Source: a bacterium (lineage in GTDB: Bacteria; UBA10199; JACPAL01; GCA-016699445). Taken from it: a stretch of DNA of 44,649 nucleotides. Of this stretch, positions 408-32,461 are shown in pieces (the stretch's first letter is position 1; every line of letters starts with the position of its first letter). The stretch lies in NCBI GenBank assembly GCA_035454885.1, contig DATIGE010000005.1, positions 1 through 44,649 on the forward strand. Reading direction: 5' to 3'. The position numbers and the translations under genes were made by a program. The notes beneath the pieces were generated by a model, which worked only from the letters and a program-made list of their open reading frames with translations, had not been told where the DNA came from and made no database searches.

Positions 408-2429
408 ATGATCAGCATTCCAACCGCCCACCTGCGTCTGCTCGTGAACCAGCTGGTGTTCTCCGCATCGCAATTGGGGGCGGGCAGTCCGGTTTCGTCG
501 GTCCTCCGCAATCTCGAGCAGCCAGTTCAATATGCATTGACCAACGAGGGTTTCGCGCCGCCGCTCGACCCCCTGAATCGGCTGATCGAGCGAAATGCTT
601 TGACCGCCTTGCTCGAAGACTCCCATGAGGAAGTCGTCTCGGCTCTCGGTCAAGCGGTCGAAGGCCTTCGACCCATCGCGGCCGCAAGCGACCGAGAGTC
701 GGCTCGGCTCCTCGAATACATGCATGGACGCTGGGAGCAGCTGGTTCGAACCGAATCGAGCGCCCTTCGCAGGCATCCTCTCGTGGCCGGCGCCCCCCCG
801 GTTTCCTCTCCCGACCGCCCCGTTCGCCGGCAACATCACACGCTCCAGACGAGCATCTACCGGCTGATCCTTGAGAATTCCAATCAACCGCTGAGCATTT
901 TCGAATTCGACGAAAACGATCGCCCCACCCTTATTCTGCACAGCCAGGCCCTGGAGAGGGAATTGGGATACGACCCCGAGGAACTCAAACAGGCGCCGAC
1001 CGATCAGCTTTTCTCGCCGGCGGTGGCCGATCAGTTTCTCGTCAAGTTGGGGCGCGCCCGGCGGACGGGGGAGCTGGATTGGCCCAGCGTGCACATGGCG
1101 CGCAAGAATGGCGCCGTGCACCTCATGGATATCCGGGCCACAATCAGCCGAACACGGGACAGGACCTACGCGCTCGTGTTTTATGCGGATACGGAAAGAC
1201 GTCTTCAGACGGAGCAATATGCCATCCAGGCACAGCGCTGGGATGCCATCCGATGTCTCATTTCGGGGCTCTCTCACAACATGAACAACGCGCTCATGAT
1301 CCCCATGGGTCACTTGAGCTACTTGGAACTGGAGCTTCGACGGGGGAATCTCAGCCCGGAACGCGTTCAGGATTTCGTCAATGACATGACGCGGGACATT
1401 CGGCTCATCGTCGAGCACATTCGTTATCTCCGGGGCGGACTCGGGGACACGCGGGGTGACGTCCAACCCTTTGATCTTCACGAGCTGCTGGCCGAAAGGA
1501 CGCTCCAGGCGATCACGAAGGGCCAGATCCCGTTGGAGATCAACCTGCCGATGATCCCGAGACGGATCATGGGTCCTCCCGCCGACATTCAGCAGGTTGT
1601 CCTGAATCTGATCACGAATGCCGTCGATGCCATGGAAGGGCGGGCAGCGCGGTTTCTGCGGATCTCGACCGATCGCAAGACGGTCAGCGAGCAGGAACTC
1701 GTCCGTCTCAATGTGCGACCGAACTTTCCGAATGCCGTTCCCGGGATCTACGTGCTCCTGAGCGTGAGCGATACCGGAACGGGAATCTCGCCGGACGTGC
1801 TGCCGAAGATTTTTGACCCCTATATGAGCACCAAGGCGCCCTTCTCGATCGTCAATCAAACCGGGAACAGCGGCCTGGGATTGAGCACGGCGCGTCATAT
1901 CGTCATGAATCAGGGCGGGTTCATTGCCGTGGAAACCGAGGAGAACGTCGGCACGACGTTTCATGTCTATCTCCCCGAGGCCGCCCGCCGCACCAGTTCA
2001 ACGCAGATGATGGCGGCCAATACCTCGCTCGAAAGTCGGGGCAACGAGGTCCTCCTTCTGGTCGACGACGACGATTTGGTCAGGCGCTCCCTCATCCGTA
2101 TGCTGGCGATCTACAAATATGGTCAGATTCTCGAGGCCAACAGCGGCGATCAGGCGTTGAAGATCCTCGAGAGGCACCCCGAAATCACGGTCATGATCAC
2201 CGATTTGAAAATGCCTCAAATGGGCGGGGACGAATTGATCGCGCGAGTACGGCGAAGCCATTCGAAGCTGCCGATCATCGCGATATCCGGTGACTATGAC
2301 GCGACGAAGGATCTCGGAACCGATGTGGCCGTTCTCCACAAGCCGCTGGTCGACCATGTCGTTCTGGCGCGGCTTCTGCGCGGTTTGATAGATGGCGAGC
2401 CTCCGAGGCCGGCCCGAAAGCCACGATAA
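408..2429 (+). CDS. Hybrid sensor histidine kinase with PAS domain and C-terminal receiver
   Basis: A 673-residue cytoplasmic sensor kinase with no membrane segment. The order is: an unrecognised N-terminal region (1-150), a PAS-like sensor (about 153-265), a dimerisation/phosphoacceptor helix pair with His290 in the motif SHNMNN, and an HATPase_c domain (about 350-525) with the N-box around Asn404, a DTGTGI G1 box and a GLGLS G2 box. A REC domain follows (about 545-665) with the acidic pocket VDDDD, phosphoacceptor Asp599 in ITDLKMP, and the conserved Lys in LHKP. Phosphate would pass from His290 to Asp599, perhaps onward to an external phosphotransfer protein. No DNA-binding output domain is attached and no partner regulator lies next door. 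The start is the first ATG; no clear Shine-Dalgarno sequence precedes it. The signal sensed by the PAS domain is unknown. Confidence 0.9.
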   Translation: MISIPTAHLRLLVNQLVFSASQLGAGSPVSSVLRNLEQPVQYALTNEGFAPPLDPLNRLIERNALTALLEDSHEEVVSALGQAVEGLRPIAAASDRESARLLEYMHGRWEQLVRTESSALRRHPLVAGAPPVSSPDRPVRRQHHTLQTSIYRLILENSNQPLSIFEFDENDRPTLILHSQALERELGYDPEELKQAPTDQLFSPAVADQFLVKLGRARRTGELDWPSVHMARKNGAVHLMDIRATISRTRDRTYALVFYADTERRLQTEQYAIQAQRWDAIRCLISGLSHNMNNALMIPMGHLSYLELELRRGNLSPERVQDFVNDMTRDIRLIVEHIRYLRGGLGDTRGDVQPFDLHELLAERTLQAITKGQIPLEINLPMIPRRIMGPPADIQQVVLNLITNAVDAMEGRAARFLRISTDRKTVSEQELVRLNVRPNFPNAVPGIYVLLSVSDTGTGISPDVLPKIFDPYMSTKAPFSIVNQTGNSGLGLSTARHIVMNQGGFIAVETEENVGTTFHVYLPEAARRTSSTQMMAANTSLESRGNEVLLLVDDDDLVRRSLIRMLAIYKYGQILEANSGDQALKILERHPEITVMITDLKMPQMGGDELIARVRRSHSKLPIIAISGDYDATKDLGTDVAVLHKPLVDHVVLARLLRGLIDGEPPRPARKPR

Positions 2430-26324: not shown

Positions 26325-26599
26325 GGACGAGATCAAAAATATCATTAATTTAGTATAAATATATCAGAGTTATAATAATTTATATGTTTTTAGAACGATC
26401 CTATGAGTCACTACGATCCTGTTTTATATGACCATATGTTTATCCAAATGAGACCATTTCTGATGAAAAGTTTTCGCCTGCAATCTTATAAATATAATTA
26501 AAAACAATATGTTATATTCATTCCCACCTCGAGCCAGTTGATCCATTCCAAAAAGTCTTTTCATACAGTGTTACTTTAGGTATACAAAGCTATCTTCAT
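26325..26599. other. AT-rich intergenic gap with promoter-like sequence
   Basis: A 275-base gap much richer in A and T than the genes either side. It holds an 8-bp direct repeat (ACGATCCT at 26395-26402 and 26413-26420), and no ORF of note. A TTTTCA (26558-26563), 17-base spacer and TATACA (26581-26586) would give a transcript starting about six bases before the ATG at 26600. No terminator for mtaB is evident. AT-richness of this kind is common in H-NS-like silenced or horizontally acquired promoters, but this is inference. Confidence 0.5.
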
Positions 26600-27256
26600 A
26601 TGTCTCCGACATTACCCGGAATTTTGAGCATCGGGTCATCGCAACTGTCGTCTTACATAAGTGCCTGGGCGGGCCTGCGGCTCCATCAGGTGGACGCCGA
26701 CCCCCTCCTCCTGGATCCCACTCGGATTGAGGTCACCGGCCGTTGCCATGGCGACGCCCTACGCTTCCGGCTGGCCAATGCCTATCTCCATCGGGGTTAC
26801 CGGCATGAGGCGGCCCTTTTTGACGCCTTGGGGGTCAATCGGGACGACTTGAAAACGGCCCTCCGCTCGGGTGTGCCCTTTCGGGCGTGGTTTTTTGAAC
26901 GCCGTCAGAACTTGCCCTGGATGAACGAGAACCCGGATCACGGAACACTGGTGGTCGACGAGCTGTTTCAATTGCGACGCTCCCTCGAACCGACGGCGCA
27001 TCGAACGGATTTATGGCAGGAGGCCGATTTCAGTCATATGCCGTCCGGAATGGTGCAACACTTCGCCTGGCTGCGGCACCTGTTTTCCACCCGCGTCCGT
27101 CTCGCTCAAGATGCCGATTTTTTTCCGGCGCTCATGTCCATCAATACCTACTTCGGCCATGACAAAAGAGAGATCTTCGAAGCGATCGGGCTCGATGAGT
27201 CTCTGCGTCGCTTCTTCCACATCAGAACCCCGCTCCCGCTCGCGAGGAGCGCGTGA
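26600..27256 (+). CDS. Unknown protein A of a tandem paralogous pair
   Basis: 218 residues with no signal peptide or membrane helix. It is homologous to the next gene: shared features in order are a Leu-Pro-x2-Leu-x-[IV]-Gly-Ser-[SA]-Gln-Leu start, a Tyr-x3-Trp region, Leu-Thr/Pro-Thr-Arg-Ile, an Asn-x-Tyr-Leu helix, a Leu-Gly-Val loop, an [AT]-x-Trp-Phe-x4 motif then Leu-Pro-Trp, Val-[VI]-Asp-[ED]-Leu-Phe-Gln-Leu, a second PSG/PGT loop with a HF-x-Trp-Leu-Arg helix, and the tail RTPLPLARSA. The ATG at 26600 has no Shine-Dalgarno sequence. Its TGA overlaps the GTG of gene B. No family is recognised and no function assigned. The Trp/Arg/His conservation hints at a binding pocket or interface. 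Confidence 0.8.
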   Translation: MSPTLPGILSIGSSQLSSYISAWAGLRLHQVDADPLLLDPTRIEVTGRCHGDALRFRLANAYLHRGYRHEAALFDALGVNRDDLKTALRSGVPFRAWFFERRQNLPWMNENPDHGTLVVDELFQLRRSLEPTAHRTDLWQEADFSHMPSGMVQHFAWLRHLFSTRVRLAQDADFFPALMSINTYFGHDKREIFEAIGLDESLRRFFHIRTPLPLARSA

Positions 27257-27942
27257 CCGCGACTTCCACTTTACCCGCCGCCCTCAATGTGGGCTCGGCC
27301 CAACTATTCAGCTACGTTCAAACATGGGCCAACGCCCGCTACCATCAATTCGACACCAACCCCATGGCCGAGGATCTCACACGGATCGACGTCACGCGCG
27401 TAGCCGATCTCGATCGCGTCCGTCTCCGGATCACGAACAATTACCTGCAAGGCGGCAACAATCACTACAGACGCTTACTGGACCTCTTGGGCGTAGAGGA
27501 AGGCTCTCAGAAGGAGGCGTGGGCGGGCGGCGTCGGATACACGGCTTGGTTTTGGCAAGAACAGCACCGATTGCCCTGGTATCATGTCGATCGCAAGCGG
27601 GCCGATTGGGTTATCGACGACCTCTTTCAGTTGAACCGGTGCCTCGAACAGACCGCCGTCCGCATCAAGTCCTGGGAAAAGGGCGGTCTCCGACGCATCC
27701 CTCCCGGGACGGAAGAACATTTCCTTTGGCTGCGCCGTCTCCTCACGAGCCGCGCCCGCCTGGCCCGCGAAGCCCTCGGCATTAAATGGGACGCCGTGAG
27801 TGAGATGCGCGCAAGTCAGATGTCTCTCAGCGTTTTCTTCGACGAGGATAAGCGAAAGCTGTTCGGGGTCGCGGGCATCAGGGCCTCTTTGGAGGAATTC
27901 TTCAGGATCCGAACCCCGATTCCCTTGGCGCGCTCGGCGTAA
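27253..27942 (+). CDS. Unknown protein B of a tandem paralogous pair
   Basis: 229 residues from a GTG at 27253 that overlaps the stop of gene A (GTGA). The two proteins align end to end: same start motif (LNVGSAQLFSY), LTRIDVT, an [NY]-YLQ helix, LGVEEG, a WFWQEQ/LPW motif, VIDDLFQLNRCLEQTA and the tail RTPIPLARSA. Gene B has a short insertion (about 10 residues) before the last segment. Paralogy with a coupled start suggests the two products work together, probably as a heteromer. No enzyme motif is visible. Gene B ends three bases before the gamma carbonic anhydrase gene, so all three could be one transcript. The family is unknown to me. Confidence 0.8.
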   Translation: MTATSTLPAALNVGSAQLFSYVQTWANARYHQFDTNPMAEDLTRIDVTRVADLDRVRLRITNNYLQGGNNHYRRLLDLLGVEEGSQKEAWAGGVGYTAWFWQEQHRLPWYHVDRKRADWVIDDLFQLNRCLEQTAVRIKSWEKGGLRRIPPGTEEHFLWLRRLLTSRARLAREALGIKWDAVSEMRASQMSLSVFFDEDKRKLFGVAGIRASLEEFFRIRTPIPLARSA

Positions 27943-27945
27943 TCC

Positions 27946-28458
27946 ATGATCCTTCGGCCCTACCAAGGCAAGTCCCCCAAGATCGATCCGACCGCCTTCA
28001 TCGCGGAAAACGCCGTGATCATCGGCGACGTCGAGATCGGCGCGCGCGCGAGCGTCTGGTACAACTGCGTGATCCGCGGCGACGTCAATTTCATCCGCAT
28101 CGGCGAGGAGACAAGCATCCAGGACGGGACCGTCGTCCACGCGGAGACCGTGCAGGGACCGACGCTCATCGGCCGGCGCGTGACCGTCGGTCACAACGCC
28201 ATCATCCACGGCTGCGTGATCGAGGATGAATGCCTGATCGGGATGGGGGCGATCGTCTTGAGCTATTCGAAGATCGGAAAGGGATCCCTCATCGCCGCCG
28301 GGGCCTTGGTGACGGAACACGAAATCGTCCCGCCGGGGACGATCATGGTGGGAGTCCCCGCCAAGCCGCGGGGCCAGGTCACGCCGGAGATGGCCCAGCG
28401 GGCCTCGATCGGGTGTGATCATTATCTCGAATTGGCCGAACAGTACCGGAAAGGCTAG
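27946..28458 (+). CDS. Gamma carbonic anhydrase family protein (YrdA/PaaY-like)
   Basis: 170 residues with a left-handed beta-helix of hexapeptide repeats ([LIV]-G-x4 units such as VIIGDVEIGARASVW). The three zinc-ligand histidines are where expected: one in VVHAET and two in VGHNAIIHG. The Arg and Gln that anchor the active site (IRGDVNFI and SIQDGT) are present. The enzyme likely forms a trimer and hydrates CO2 or serves as a thioester-processing accessory. It starts three bases after the paralogous gene B. Its TAG stop is supplied by the first bases of the palindromic repeat at 28454. Confidence 0.95.
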   Translation: MILRPYQGKSPKIDPTAFIAENAVIIGDVEIGARASVWYNCVIRGDVNFIRIGEETSIQDGTVVHAETVQGPTLIGRRVTVGHNAIIHGCVIEDECLIGMGAIVLSYSKIGKGSLIAAGALVTEHEIVPPGTIMVGVPAKPRGQVTPEMAQRASIGCDHYLELAEQYRKG

Positions 28459-31396: not shown

Positions 31397-32461
31397 TCAA
31401 GAAAGGAGGTTTTTCAGATAAGCGGCGACATAAGCGCGGCGCGACTCATGGACAAAGGGTTCCCACGCGGCATGGACCTCCGCGAGAAACCGGCGATGGA
31501 GATCGGAGGCCTGATTTTGCCGGATGTCGTCGCGCACGTAGAAAAAGGCGCCTGTGACAAGGTCATCGGTCGCGCCTCTTGGCAATTCCTTGTCGGACAG
31601 AAAATCCATCATGGGATCGACGAAGGGAAGTCCCCTCAACTCCGGCGGCAAGCCTCGAACCGCCTCGTAGAGGCCGGCCGCCATGGTCCGGAGCGGCACC
31701 GGGAGCGTCGCTACGAGGACGGCGTGGTAGACGTCATGCTTGGCGAAGATGAATGGATGCACCAGACACCCCGCATGCGACAGGTAGATGAGATCCGTCG
31801 GCAAGGCGATCGCCTGACGCCCCTCCAAGTGCTCACGATTGAAGTCGTCCCGGGGCATTTCTCCGAGCGCATAGCTCCATTCCGCACTCCCGCCGGCGCC
31901 GAAGGAGGCCATCCTCCCAAGACGGTTGGCTTCGCCCTCGAGAAAACCGAGGGTTGGAATACGTACGGTTGCCTCGTCCCGCGCTTCCTCATAGAGGGCG
32001 TACGGAAGGTTCAGGAATCTCCCGATCGCTTGAAGGCGGTCCGAGAAGAAAATCGTCGGAGACTTCAGGAACGTGGCTCGGCAGCGAAATTCGAGGATCC
32101 CGTCTTGGGCGTCGTAACCGACGGAAGAGCCGGGAACGGCCGTGAAAAAGTCCAGGGCGAGCGTCTGCCAAAGAAAATCCGCAGCCCTTCCCGCGGGAAT
32201 CGCTCCCAGGCGGGCGGCATCGAGGGCCCCCCCGACGGTTTTCCGGAGATCCTCGGACAAGAGCGAGGCGGCCAGCCCCTGTCTCGCTCCCATCAGGAAC
32301 GGACGATGCCTCTCATTGGCCGTGAACCAGGGGGATGGGCCAATCACGGAAGATCCGGCGATTGAGGTCGAATCCGTCGCTAACCCTTCGAAGAGAAGGG
32401 CCGTCATCGGCAAAAAAGTCGCTCTTTGGATAGGATTCATAACGGCATCGTCCCGCGTCAT
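31397..32461 (-). CDS. Unknown protein, 354 aa
   Basis: An ATG at 32461 gives 354 residues; an ATG seven codons on (32440) is an alternative. It has no signal peptide, no membrane helix and no known motif. The sequence is mixed, with several His/Asp/Glu-containing helices ([24 protein letters not shown] is notable for four histidines close together), and a helical end ([14 protein letters not shown]). The histidine cluster could be a metal site, as in other metal-dependent helical proteins, but that is speculation. It is divergent from the SCP2-like gene with an AT-rich gap, and sits 46 bases upstream of ilvD on the same strand. The Shine-Dalgarno sequence is weak (AAGGG too close). Confidence 0.7.

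What the first reader, a model, noticed from the sequence alone, without database searches (positions are those of the whole stretch)
26325..27942. Tandem paralogous genes of unknown family behind an AT-rich promoter gap
Two unknown genes (218 and 229 residues) with a GTGA overlap align end to end and share the tail RTP[LI]PLARSA, plus a conserved Trp/Leu-Pro-Trp/DELFQL core. They follow a 275-base AT-rich gap in an otherwise GC-rich window. The coupled pair may form a heteromer and could be an unrecognised two-component protein system. They lie three bases from a gamma carbonic anhydrase gene, which could give a clue to their role.
Basis: partly seen in the sequence, partly recalled or inferred. 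Interest (0 to 1): 0.62.

Follow-up and report, generated by a model that had tools for sequence, protein, structure and literature searches.

The report
Orphan helical protein family, possibly exported
Two overlapping bacterial genes are a local duplication within a previously unlisted family of all-helical proteins; their charge-free beginnings, together with a type III secretion machine in the same genome, make them candidates for proteins that the cell exports into other cells, which is not yet proven.

Summary
Gene A (26600-27256, 218 aa) and gene B (27253-27942, 229 aa) overlap by GTGA and are 42% identical end to end. They follow a 275-bp gap of 29% GC in a 61% GC window. No Pfam, NCBIfam, PHROG, PADLOC or PDB model matches. 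The interpretation needs changing. A and B are not a unique pair: the genome has five more dispersed relatives, and a second genome of the class (MAG OFTM19, 'Deltaproteobacteria') has four. Copies occur singly (4 loci), as pairs (2) or as a triple (1); 2 of 46 genomes searched have the family. A and B are each other's closest relatives, so a conserved A-plus-B heteromer is not supported. The carbonic anhydrase link is not conserved (13 of 13 relatives examined). AlphaFold gives confident all-alpha models without a fold match. The unexpected feature is the N-terminus: no charged residue at positions 2-17 in 9 of 11 members, against 16 of 294 control genes, most of which look like orphans. The genome has a non-flagellar-type type III secretion cluster, and SctV is found in 44 of 46 class genomes. 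Best reading: a lineage-specific family of candidate type III substrates; export is inferred, not shown.

The parts
26600..27256 (+). Gene A, 218 aa, member of the orphan all-helical family; residues 1-26 carry no D/E/K/R
27253..27942 (+). Gene B, 229 aa, tandem paralog of A (42% identity); residues 1-28 carry no D/E/K/R; AlphaFold pLDDT 84.9, pTM 0.83, all alpha
27244..27256 (+). GAGGAG Shine-Dalgarno-like stretch (27244-27249) inside the end of A, then the GTGA stop/start overlap (27253-27256): likely translational coupling of B to A
   Evidence: read directly from the sequence
26325..26599 (.). AT-rich intergenic gap (29% GC) upstream of A, probable promoter/regulatory region; no sigma-70 consensus match above chance, no Rfam match, no repeats
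26490..26517 (-). 28-bp element (ATATAACATATTG.T.TTAA.TATATTT on the - strand), 89% identical to one other place in the genome, upstream of a 1270-aa orphan gene on contig C6
24984..26324 (+). Upstream neighbour: MtaB-type tRNA methylthiotransferase (TIGR01579, 415 bits, above cut-off); not part of the system
27946..28458 (+). Downstream neighbour: hexapeptide-repeat protein, gamma carbonic anhydrase-like (NF050158 170 bits, below its 250-bit cut-off); linkage to A/B not conserved

Best explanation
A and B are a recent tandem duplication inside a fast-diverging, lineage-restricted family of about 200-235 aa all-helical proteins. Shown: the family, its dispersion, its tandem loci, its predicted all-alpha fold and its charge-free N-terminus. 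Inferred: (1) B is translated by coupling to A; (2) the uncharged, S/T/A/L/I-rich first ~25 residues act as a type III export signal; (3) the proteins leave the cytoplasm through the non-flagellar-type type III machine encoded in the same genome and act as binding or scaffold-type effectors on a partner cell (host or prey). No catalytic residue is conserved: the nearly invariant positions are L, W and R. In this view tandem copies are variants of one effector type, not two subunits.
For: Seven members in this genome and four in OFTM19, found by profile. Nearly invariant columns are L18, W25, L75, L79, L124, W141 and R167, with no conserved catalytic-type H/C/D/E/K. All-alpha models in two members only about 21% identical. 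No D/E/K/R at positions 2-17 in 9 of 11 members (1 each in the other two) versus 16 of 294 non-membrane-like control genes, Fisher p 2e-9; using only the 8 members whose start is the least ambiguous, 6 of 8, p 2e-6 (rows are related, so these p-values overstate). In 10 of 11 members the longest uncharged run of the whole protein starts at residue 1; median first charged residue 29 versus 4 in controls. T3 signals are described as rich in polar residues, especially serine, with few charged residues (PMC2668754). Type III cluster on contig C13: SctV 816 bits over its cut-off with FlhA below its own, SctR and SctS over cut-off, a SctN/FliI ATPase, SctL/FliH-, FliM- and FliJ-like parts; only one FHIPEP gene in the genome, so no separate flagellar FlhA was found. 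SctV in 44 of 46 class genomes, including OFTM19. Of the other genes with such N-termini, 8 of 10 tested and both orphans beside the C66 copy have no Pfam match at the limits used; one has an HPr domain and one a sub-threshold DnaJ hit. Several lie together in one unidirectional run, C38:9714-17287.
Against: Export was not and could not be tested. The uncharged stretch overlaps the first predicted helix (13-26, pLDDT about 92), so a fold constraint could explain part of it, and known T3 signals are mostly coil and exposed (PMC3617162). The family is in only 2 of 46 genomes while SctV is in 44, so presence does not discriminate. No T3 chaperone-like gene is next to A/B, and the copies are not near the T3SS cluster. 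The 11 members are related, not independent samples. Two small proteins of the T3SS cluster that could be substrates do not obviously share the charge-free start. The start codon is ambiguous in three members (C14, C35a, C38).
Confidence: 0.45

Rival explanations
1. A cytoplasmic family of helical scaffold or regulatory proteins. The charge-free N-terminus is simply a buried first helix with the GxxQLxxYxxxW pattern, and the resemblance to T3 signals is incidental.
For: Helix 13-26 is predicted with high confidence and its pattern is shared across the family. Family presence does not track with the T3SS. No export evidence.
Against: Residues 2-12, outside helix 1 and of low confidence in B, are uncharged too, and about a dozen unrelated orphans of the same genome share the same kind of start.
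Confidence: 0.33
2. One reading: A and B form a dedicated two-subunit (heteromeric) protein system.
For: GTGA overlap with an AGGAG-type site inside A suggests balanced synthesis. Tandem copies recur: a second pair on C35 and a triple in OFTM19.
Against: Four of seven loci have one copy. A and B are sisters in the tree, with no A-type and B-type lineages. C35 partners are only 23% identical, no closer than other members. The complex could not be modelled here.
Confidence: 0.15
3. A and B work with the neighbouring gamma carbonic anhydrase or MtaB as a metabolic operon.
For: Three-base spacing to the carbonic anhydrase gene, same strand.
Against: Carbonic anhydrase lies after miaB-type and DUF151-like genes in 13 of 13 relatives without the pair. 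The other family loci have quite different neighbours.
Confidence: 0.03

Closest known systems
Type III secretion effectors (as a functional class)
   Same: Lineage-specific and fast-diverging, with polar uncharged N-terminus, no Sec signal or membrane-like N-terminus, dispersed and tandem paralogs, and a type III machine in the same genome
   Different: No sequence or fold relation to any effector in the libraries searched; secretion untested; first helix begins by residue 13; no neighbouring chaperone seen
Myxococcus 'needleless' T3SS* / early-branching Myxococcales NF-T3SS (PMC3459982, PMC12075869)
   Same: A non-flagellar-type type III apparatus in a deltaproteobacterial-type lineage
   Different: Only the machine is comparable, not A/B. 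Whether this genome's system has a secretin, needle and translocon was not determined, and its place in the NF-T3SS tree was not computed
DUF6389 (PF19926), DUF6657 (PF20362)
   Same: Best sub-threshold Pfam hits of single members (E 0.2 and 0.014)
   Different: Far below curated cut-offs and not shared between members; treated as chance

Membership tests
Type III secreted effector | N-terminal signal region, few charged and many polar residues | tested here: met
   0 charged in positions 2-17 in 9 of 11; first charged residue median 29; composition only, not function
Type III secreted effector | Type III export apparatus in the same genome | tested here: met
   SctV, SctR, SctS over NCBIfam cut-offs, plus ATPase, SctL-, FliM-, FliJ-like parts on C13
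Type III secreted effector | Disordered, exposed N-terminus | tested here: inconclusive
   B residues 1-8 pLDDT below 50, but helix 13-26 is confident
Type III secreted effector | No Sec signal peptide or N-terminal membrane helix | tested here: met
   Maximum 15-residue hydropathy in the first 45 residues 0.3-1.3, below the 1.8 limit used
Type III secreted effector | T3SS-dependent secretion or translocation | not testable with these tools
   Needs an experiment
Type III secreted effector | Cognate chaperone gene nearby (common, not obligatory) | tested here: not met
   Neighbours of A/B are mtaB and a carbonic anhydrase-like gene; no chaperone-like gene was evident in ORF lists at the other loci
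Known protein family (Pfam, NCBIfam, PHROGs, PADLOC, PDB) | Profile match over the curated cut-off | tested here: not met
Known fold (PDB, BFVD) | Significant Foldseek match | tested here: not met
   Best E 0.59 and 0.16 against PDB, 1.3 against BFVD, with low TM-scores; AlphaFold DB of cellular proteins not available
Obligate two-component (A+B) system | Conserved side-by-side A-type and B-type genes | tested here: not met
   Four single, two pair, one triple loci; A and B are sisters
Obligate two-component (A+B) system | Confident heterodimer interface | not testable with these tools
   Only single chains can be predicted

The most novel reading that the evidence does not exclude
An uncultured bacterial class in which nearly every genome has SctV may export a large, unrecognised repertoire of orphan proteins marked by a charge-free ~17-30 residue N-terminus, perhaps several dozen per genome by extrapolation. 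The A/B family, with no detected fold relative, would be one multi-copy member of that repertoire, used against a host or prey.
Probability: 0.38. Interest if true: 0.72.

Novelty: new member of a known kind. Interest (0 to 1): 0.5.

Why it matters
If the charge-free N-terminus is an export signal, it turns a set of nameless orphans into a testable list of type III substrates in a lineage for which no paper linking it to T3SS was found (class identity itself was not established). It would ask what these bacteria inject and into whom, in a setting possibly comparable to the early-branching Myxococcales T3SS. Even without that, the work defines a new protein family with a confidently modelled fold that matches nothing in the libraries searched.

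Tried and rejected
Direct protein searches in phages, plasmids and IMG/VR gave nothing. The genome-contig scan with B found nothing; the scan with an OFTM19 copy returned only OFTM19 itself. G006 and G017 hits with the single-protein query vanished with the profile. G016, G014 and G010 hits with A3 are weak (E 0.001-0.3), mostly with stops inside, and were discarded. Rfam search of the gap and pair found nothing. AT-rich gap as a family or orphan hallmark: rejected, since upstream GC of charge-free genes is not lower than that of others (p 0.36). A regulon behind the 28-bp element: only two perfect core copies in the genome and seven 3-mismatch sites versus two for the reversed control; left open. 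Carbonic anhydrase linkage: rejected. PADLOC defence role: no match.

Full report
Observation. A spans 26600-27256 and B 27253-27942; A's stop and B's GTG start share GTGA, and GAGGAG at 27244-27249 lies just upstream of B's start. BLASTP aligns them end to end at 42% identity, E 1e-62. The 275-bp gap before A is 29% GC in a 60.6% GC window and is its most AT-rich stretch.

A family, not a pair. Single-protein and profile searches of the window's own genome (2.76 Mb, 82 contigs) find five more members: C66, C38, C14 and a tandem pair on C35. A profile of seven members finds four in another genome of the class: three in a row on one contig and one elsewhere. A genome-collection scan with one of these returns the record 'Deltaproteobacteria bacterium isolate OFTM19'. 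Family presence is 2 of 46 genomes held for this class; a phylum-wide query returned the same 46 genomes. OFTM19's assembly has 8% estimated contamination, so its copies could in principle come from another organism. Outside the A-B pair, identities are 14-28%. No library of families, defence genes, solved sequences, phages or plasmids contains a relative.

Pair or duplication. The seven loci carry 2 (this window), 1, 1, 1 and 2 copies in this genome and 3 and 1 in OFTM19. In the tree A and B join each other (88/94) and C14 joins an OFTM19 copy (94/93); other forks are unresolved and many branches are long. Nothing supports two conserved subunit types. The shared tail RTPxPLARSA is therefore recent common ancestry, not a family motif.

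Neighbourhood. The gene three bases downstream is a hexapeptide-repeat protein that matches the gamma carbonic anhydrase model below its strict cut-off. In 13 of 13 relatives examined its upstream neighbours are a MiaB/MtaB-type gene and a gene carrying the VTGLTIDPFTNMPIIILKD sequence (which I read as DUF151), usually with a VanZ-like gene, and often a tilS-like gene after it (gene names beyond MiaB/MtaB are my reading of the translations). The A-B insertion and the mtaB neighbour are specific to this genome among those examined, so the neighbour gives no clue. Other family loci have unrelated neighbours.

Structure. With an 11-row alignment AlphaFold2 models B at pLDDT 84.9, pTM 0.83, all alpha, with long helices 50-78, 114-143 and 153-175; only residues 1-8 and 224-229 are below 50. 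An OFTM19 member with 21% identity also gives an all-alpha model with a similar helix order (81.4, 0.77). Foldseek finds no significant match. Nearly invariant residues are L, W and R, which argues against a conserved catalytic centre and for a binding or scaffold role (inference).

The unexpected feature. Nine of eleven members have no D, E, K or R at positions 2-17 and the other two have one, although the whole proteins are 17-26% charged. In ten of eleven the longest uncharged run of the protein starts at residue 1; the first charged residue is at median position 29 versus 4 in control genes. Among 294 called non-membrane-like genes from about 566 kb of the same genome, 16 (5.4%) have none. 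The members are related and the gene calls are home-made, so the p-values (2e-9, or 2e-6 for the eight with the least ambiguous starts) overstate the case, but the effect is large. Most of the 16 look like orphans: of ten such genes scanned (chosen from the first, cruder gene set), eight have no Pfam match, one has an HPr domain and one a sub-threshold DnaJ hit; both orphans flanking the C66 copy also have none. Nine genes in one run on C38 (9714-17287), several of them paralogous and overlapping, mostly begin this way. One more such gene reads as a protein kinase after the stretch (L119:8262-9557; its kinase nature is my reading of the translation).

Why type III. Type III signals are described as rich in polar residues, especially serine, with few charged residues (PMC2668754) and as serine-rich coil (PMC3617162). 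I therefore looked for a machine. The only FHIPEP gene in the genome passes the SctV model (816 over 692) and fails FlhA (699 under 772). Beside it are SctR and SctS over their cut-offs, an ATPase that passes both a SctN and a FliI model, SctL/FliH-, FliJ- and FliM-like genes and an FHA protein with a weak SctD match. SctV is found in 44 of 46 genomes of the class, 38 over the strict cut-off. Myxococcales keep an early-branching NF-T3SS that lacks some core genes (PMC3459982), and in Myxococcus xanthus a needleless T3SS works in prey killing (PMC12075869). No paper linking UBA10199 (my unverified guess for the class) to type III secretion was found.

Judgement. Solid: a new orphan family, tandem duplication, a confident fold without a known match, a strikingly uncharged N-terminus, and a type III machine in the genome. 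Inferred: translational coupling, export and effector role. The main rival is that the start is a buried first helix of a cytoplasmic protein. I give export 0.45. The AT-rich gap is real but not shared by other copies; it contains a 28-bp element 89% identical to one site upstream of a 1270-aa orphan on C6, which may be a shared regulatory site or chance.

Noticed in passing
G000 contig C38:9714-17287 (L118): A unidirectional run of nine orphan-looking genes, some overlapping and some paralogous, most with charge-free N-termini; looks like an island of candidate type III substrates.
   Followed up: partly
G000 contig C13 (L079, L081): Type III secretion cluster with SctV, SctR, SctS, a SctN/FliI ATPase, SctL/FliH-, FliJ-, FliM-like genes and an FHA protein with a weak SctD match; SctV found in 44 of 46 genomes of the class.
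   Followed up: partly
window 26490-26517 and G000:C6:45647-45674 (L048): A 28-bp AT-rich element shared at 89% identity between the gap before gene A and the promoter region of a 1270-aa orphan gene.
   Followed up: partly
window 408-2426 and 31400-32461: Two further orphan-looking genes of the window with similar starts (MISIPTAHLRLLVNQ..., and [16 protein letters not shown]... from an internal ATG); the second has no Pfam match.
   Followed up: no
L119:8262-9557 and L031:4322-5542 (OFTM19): Proteins that read as kinases preceded by a charge-free stretch (MPITSVMLPAFPFVLGPAHSG..., MSALVFLQPSVMALQGIVTSG... from an internal ATG); candidate exported kinases.
   Followed up: no
L054-L066: Class-wide conserved order miaB-type, DUF151-like, usually VanZ-like, gamma carbonic anhydrase-like, often tilS-like, from which the window's genome departs.
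   Followed up: partly
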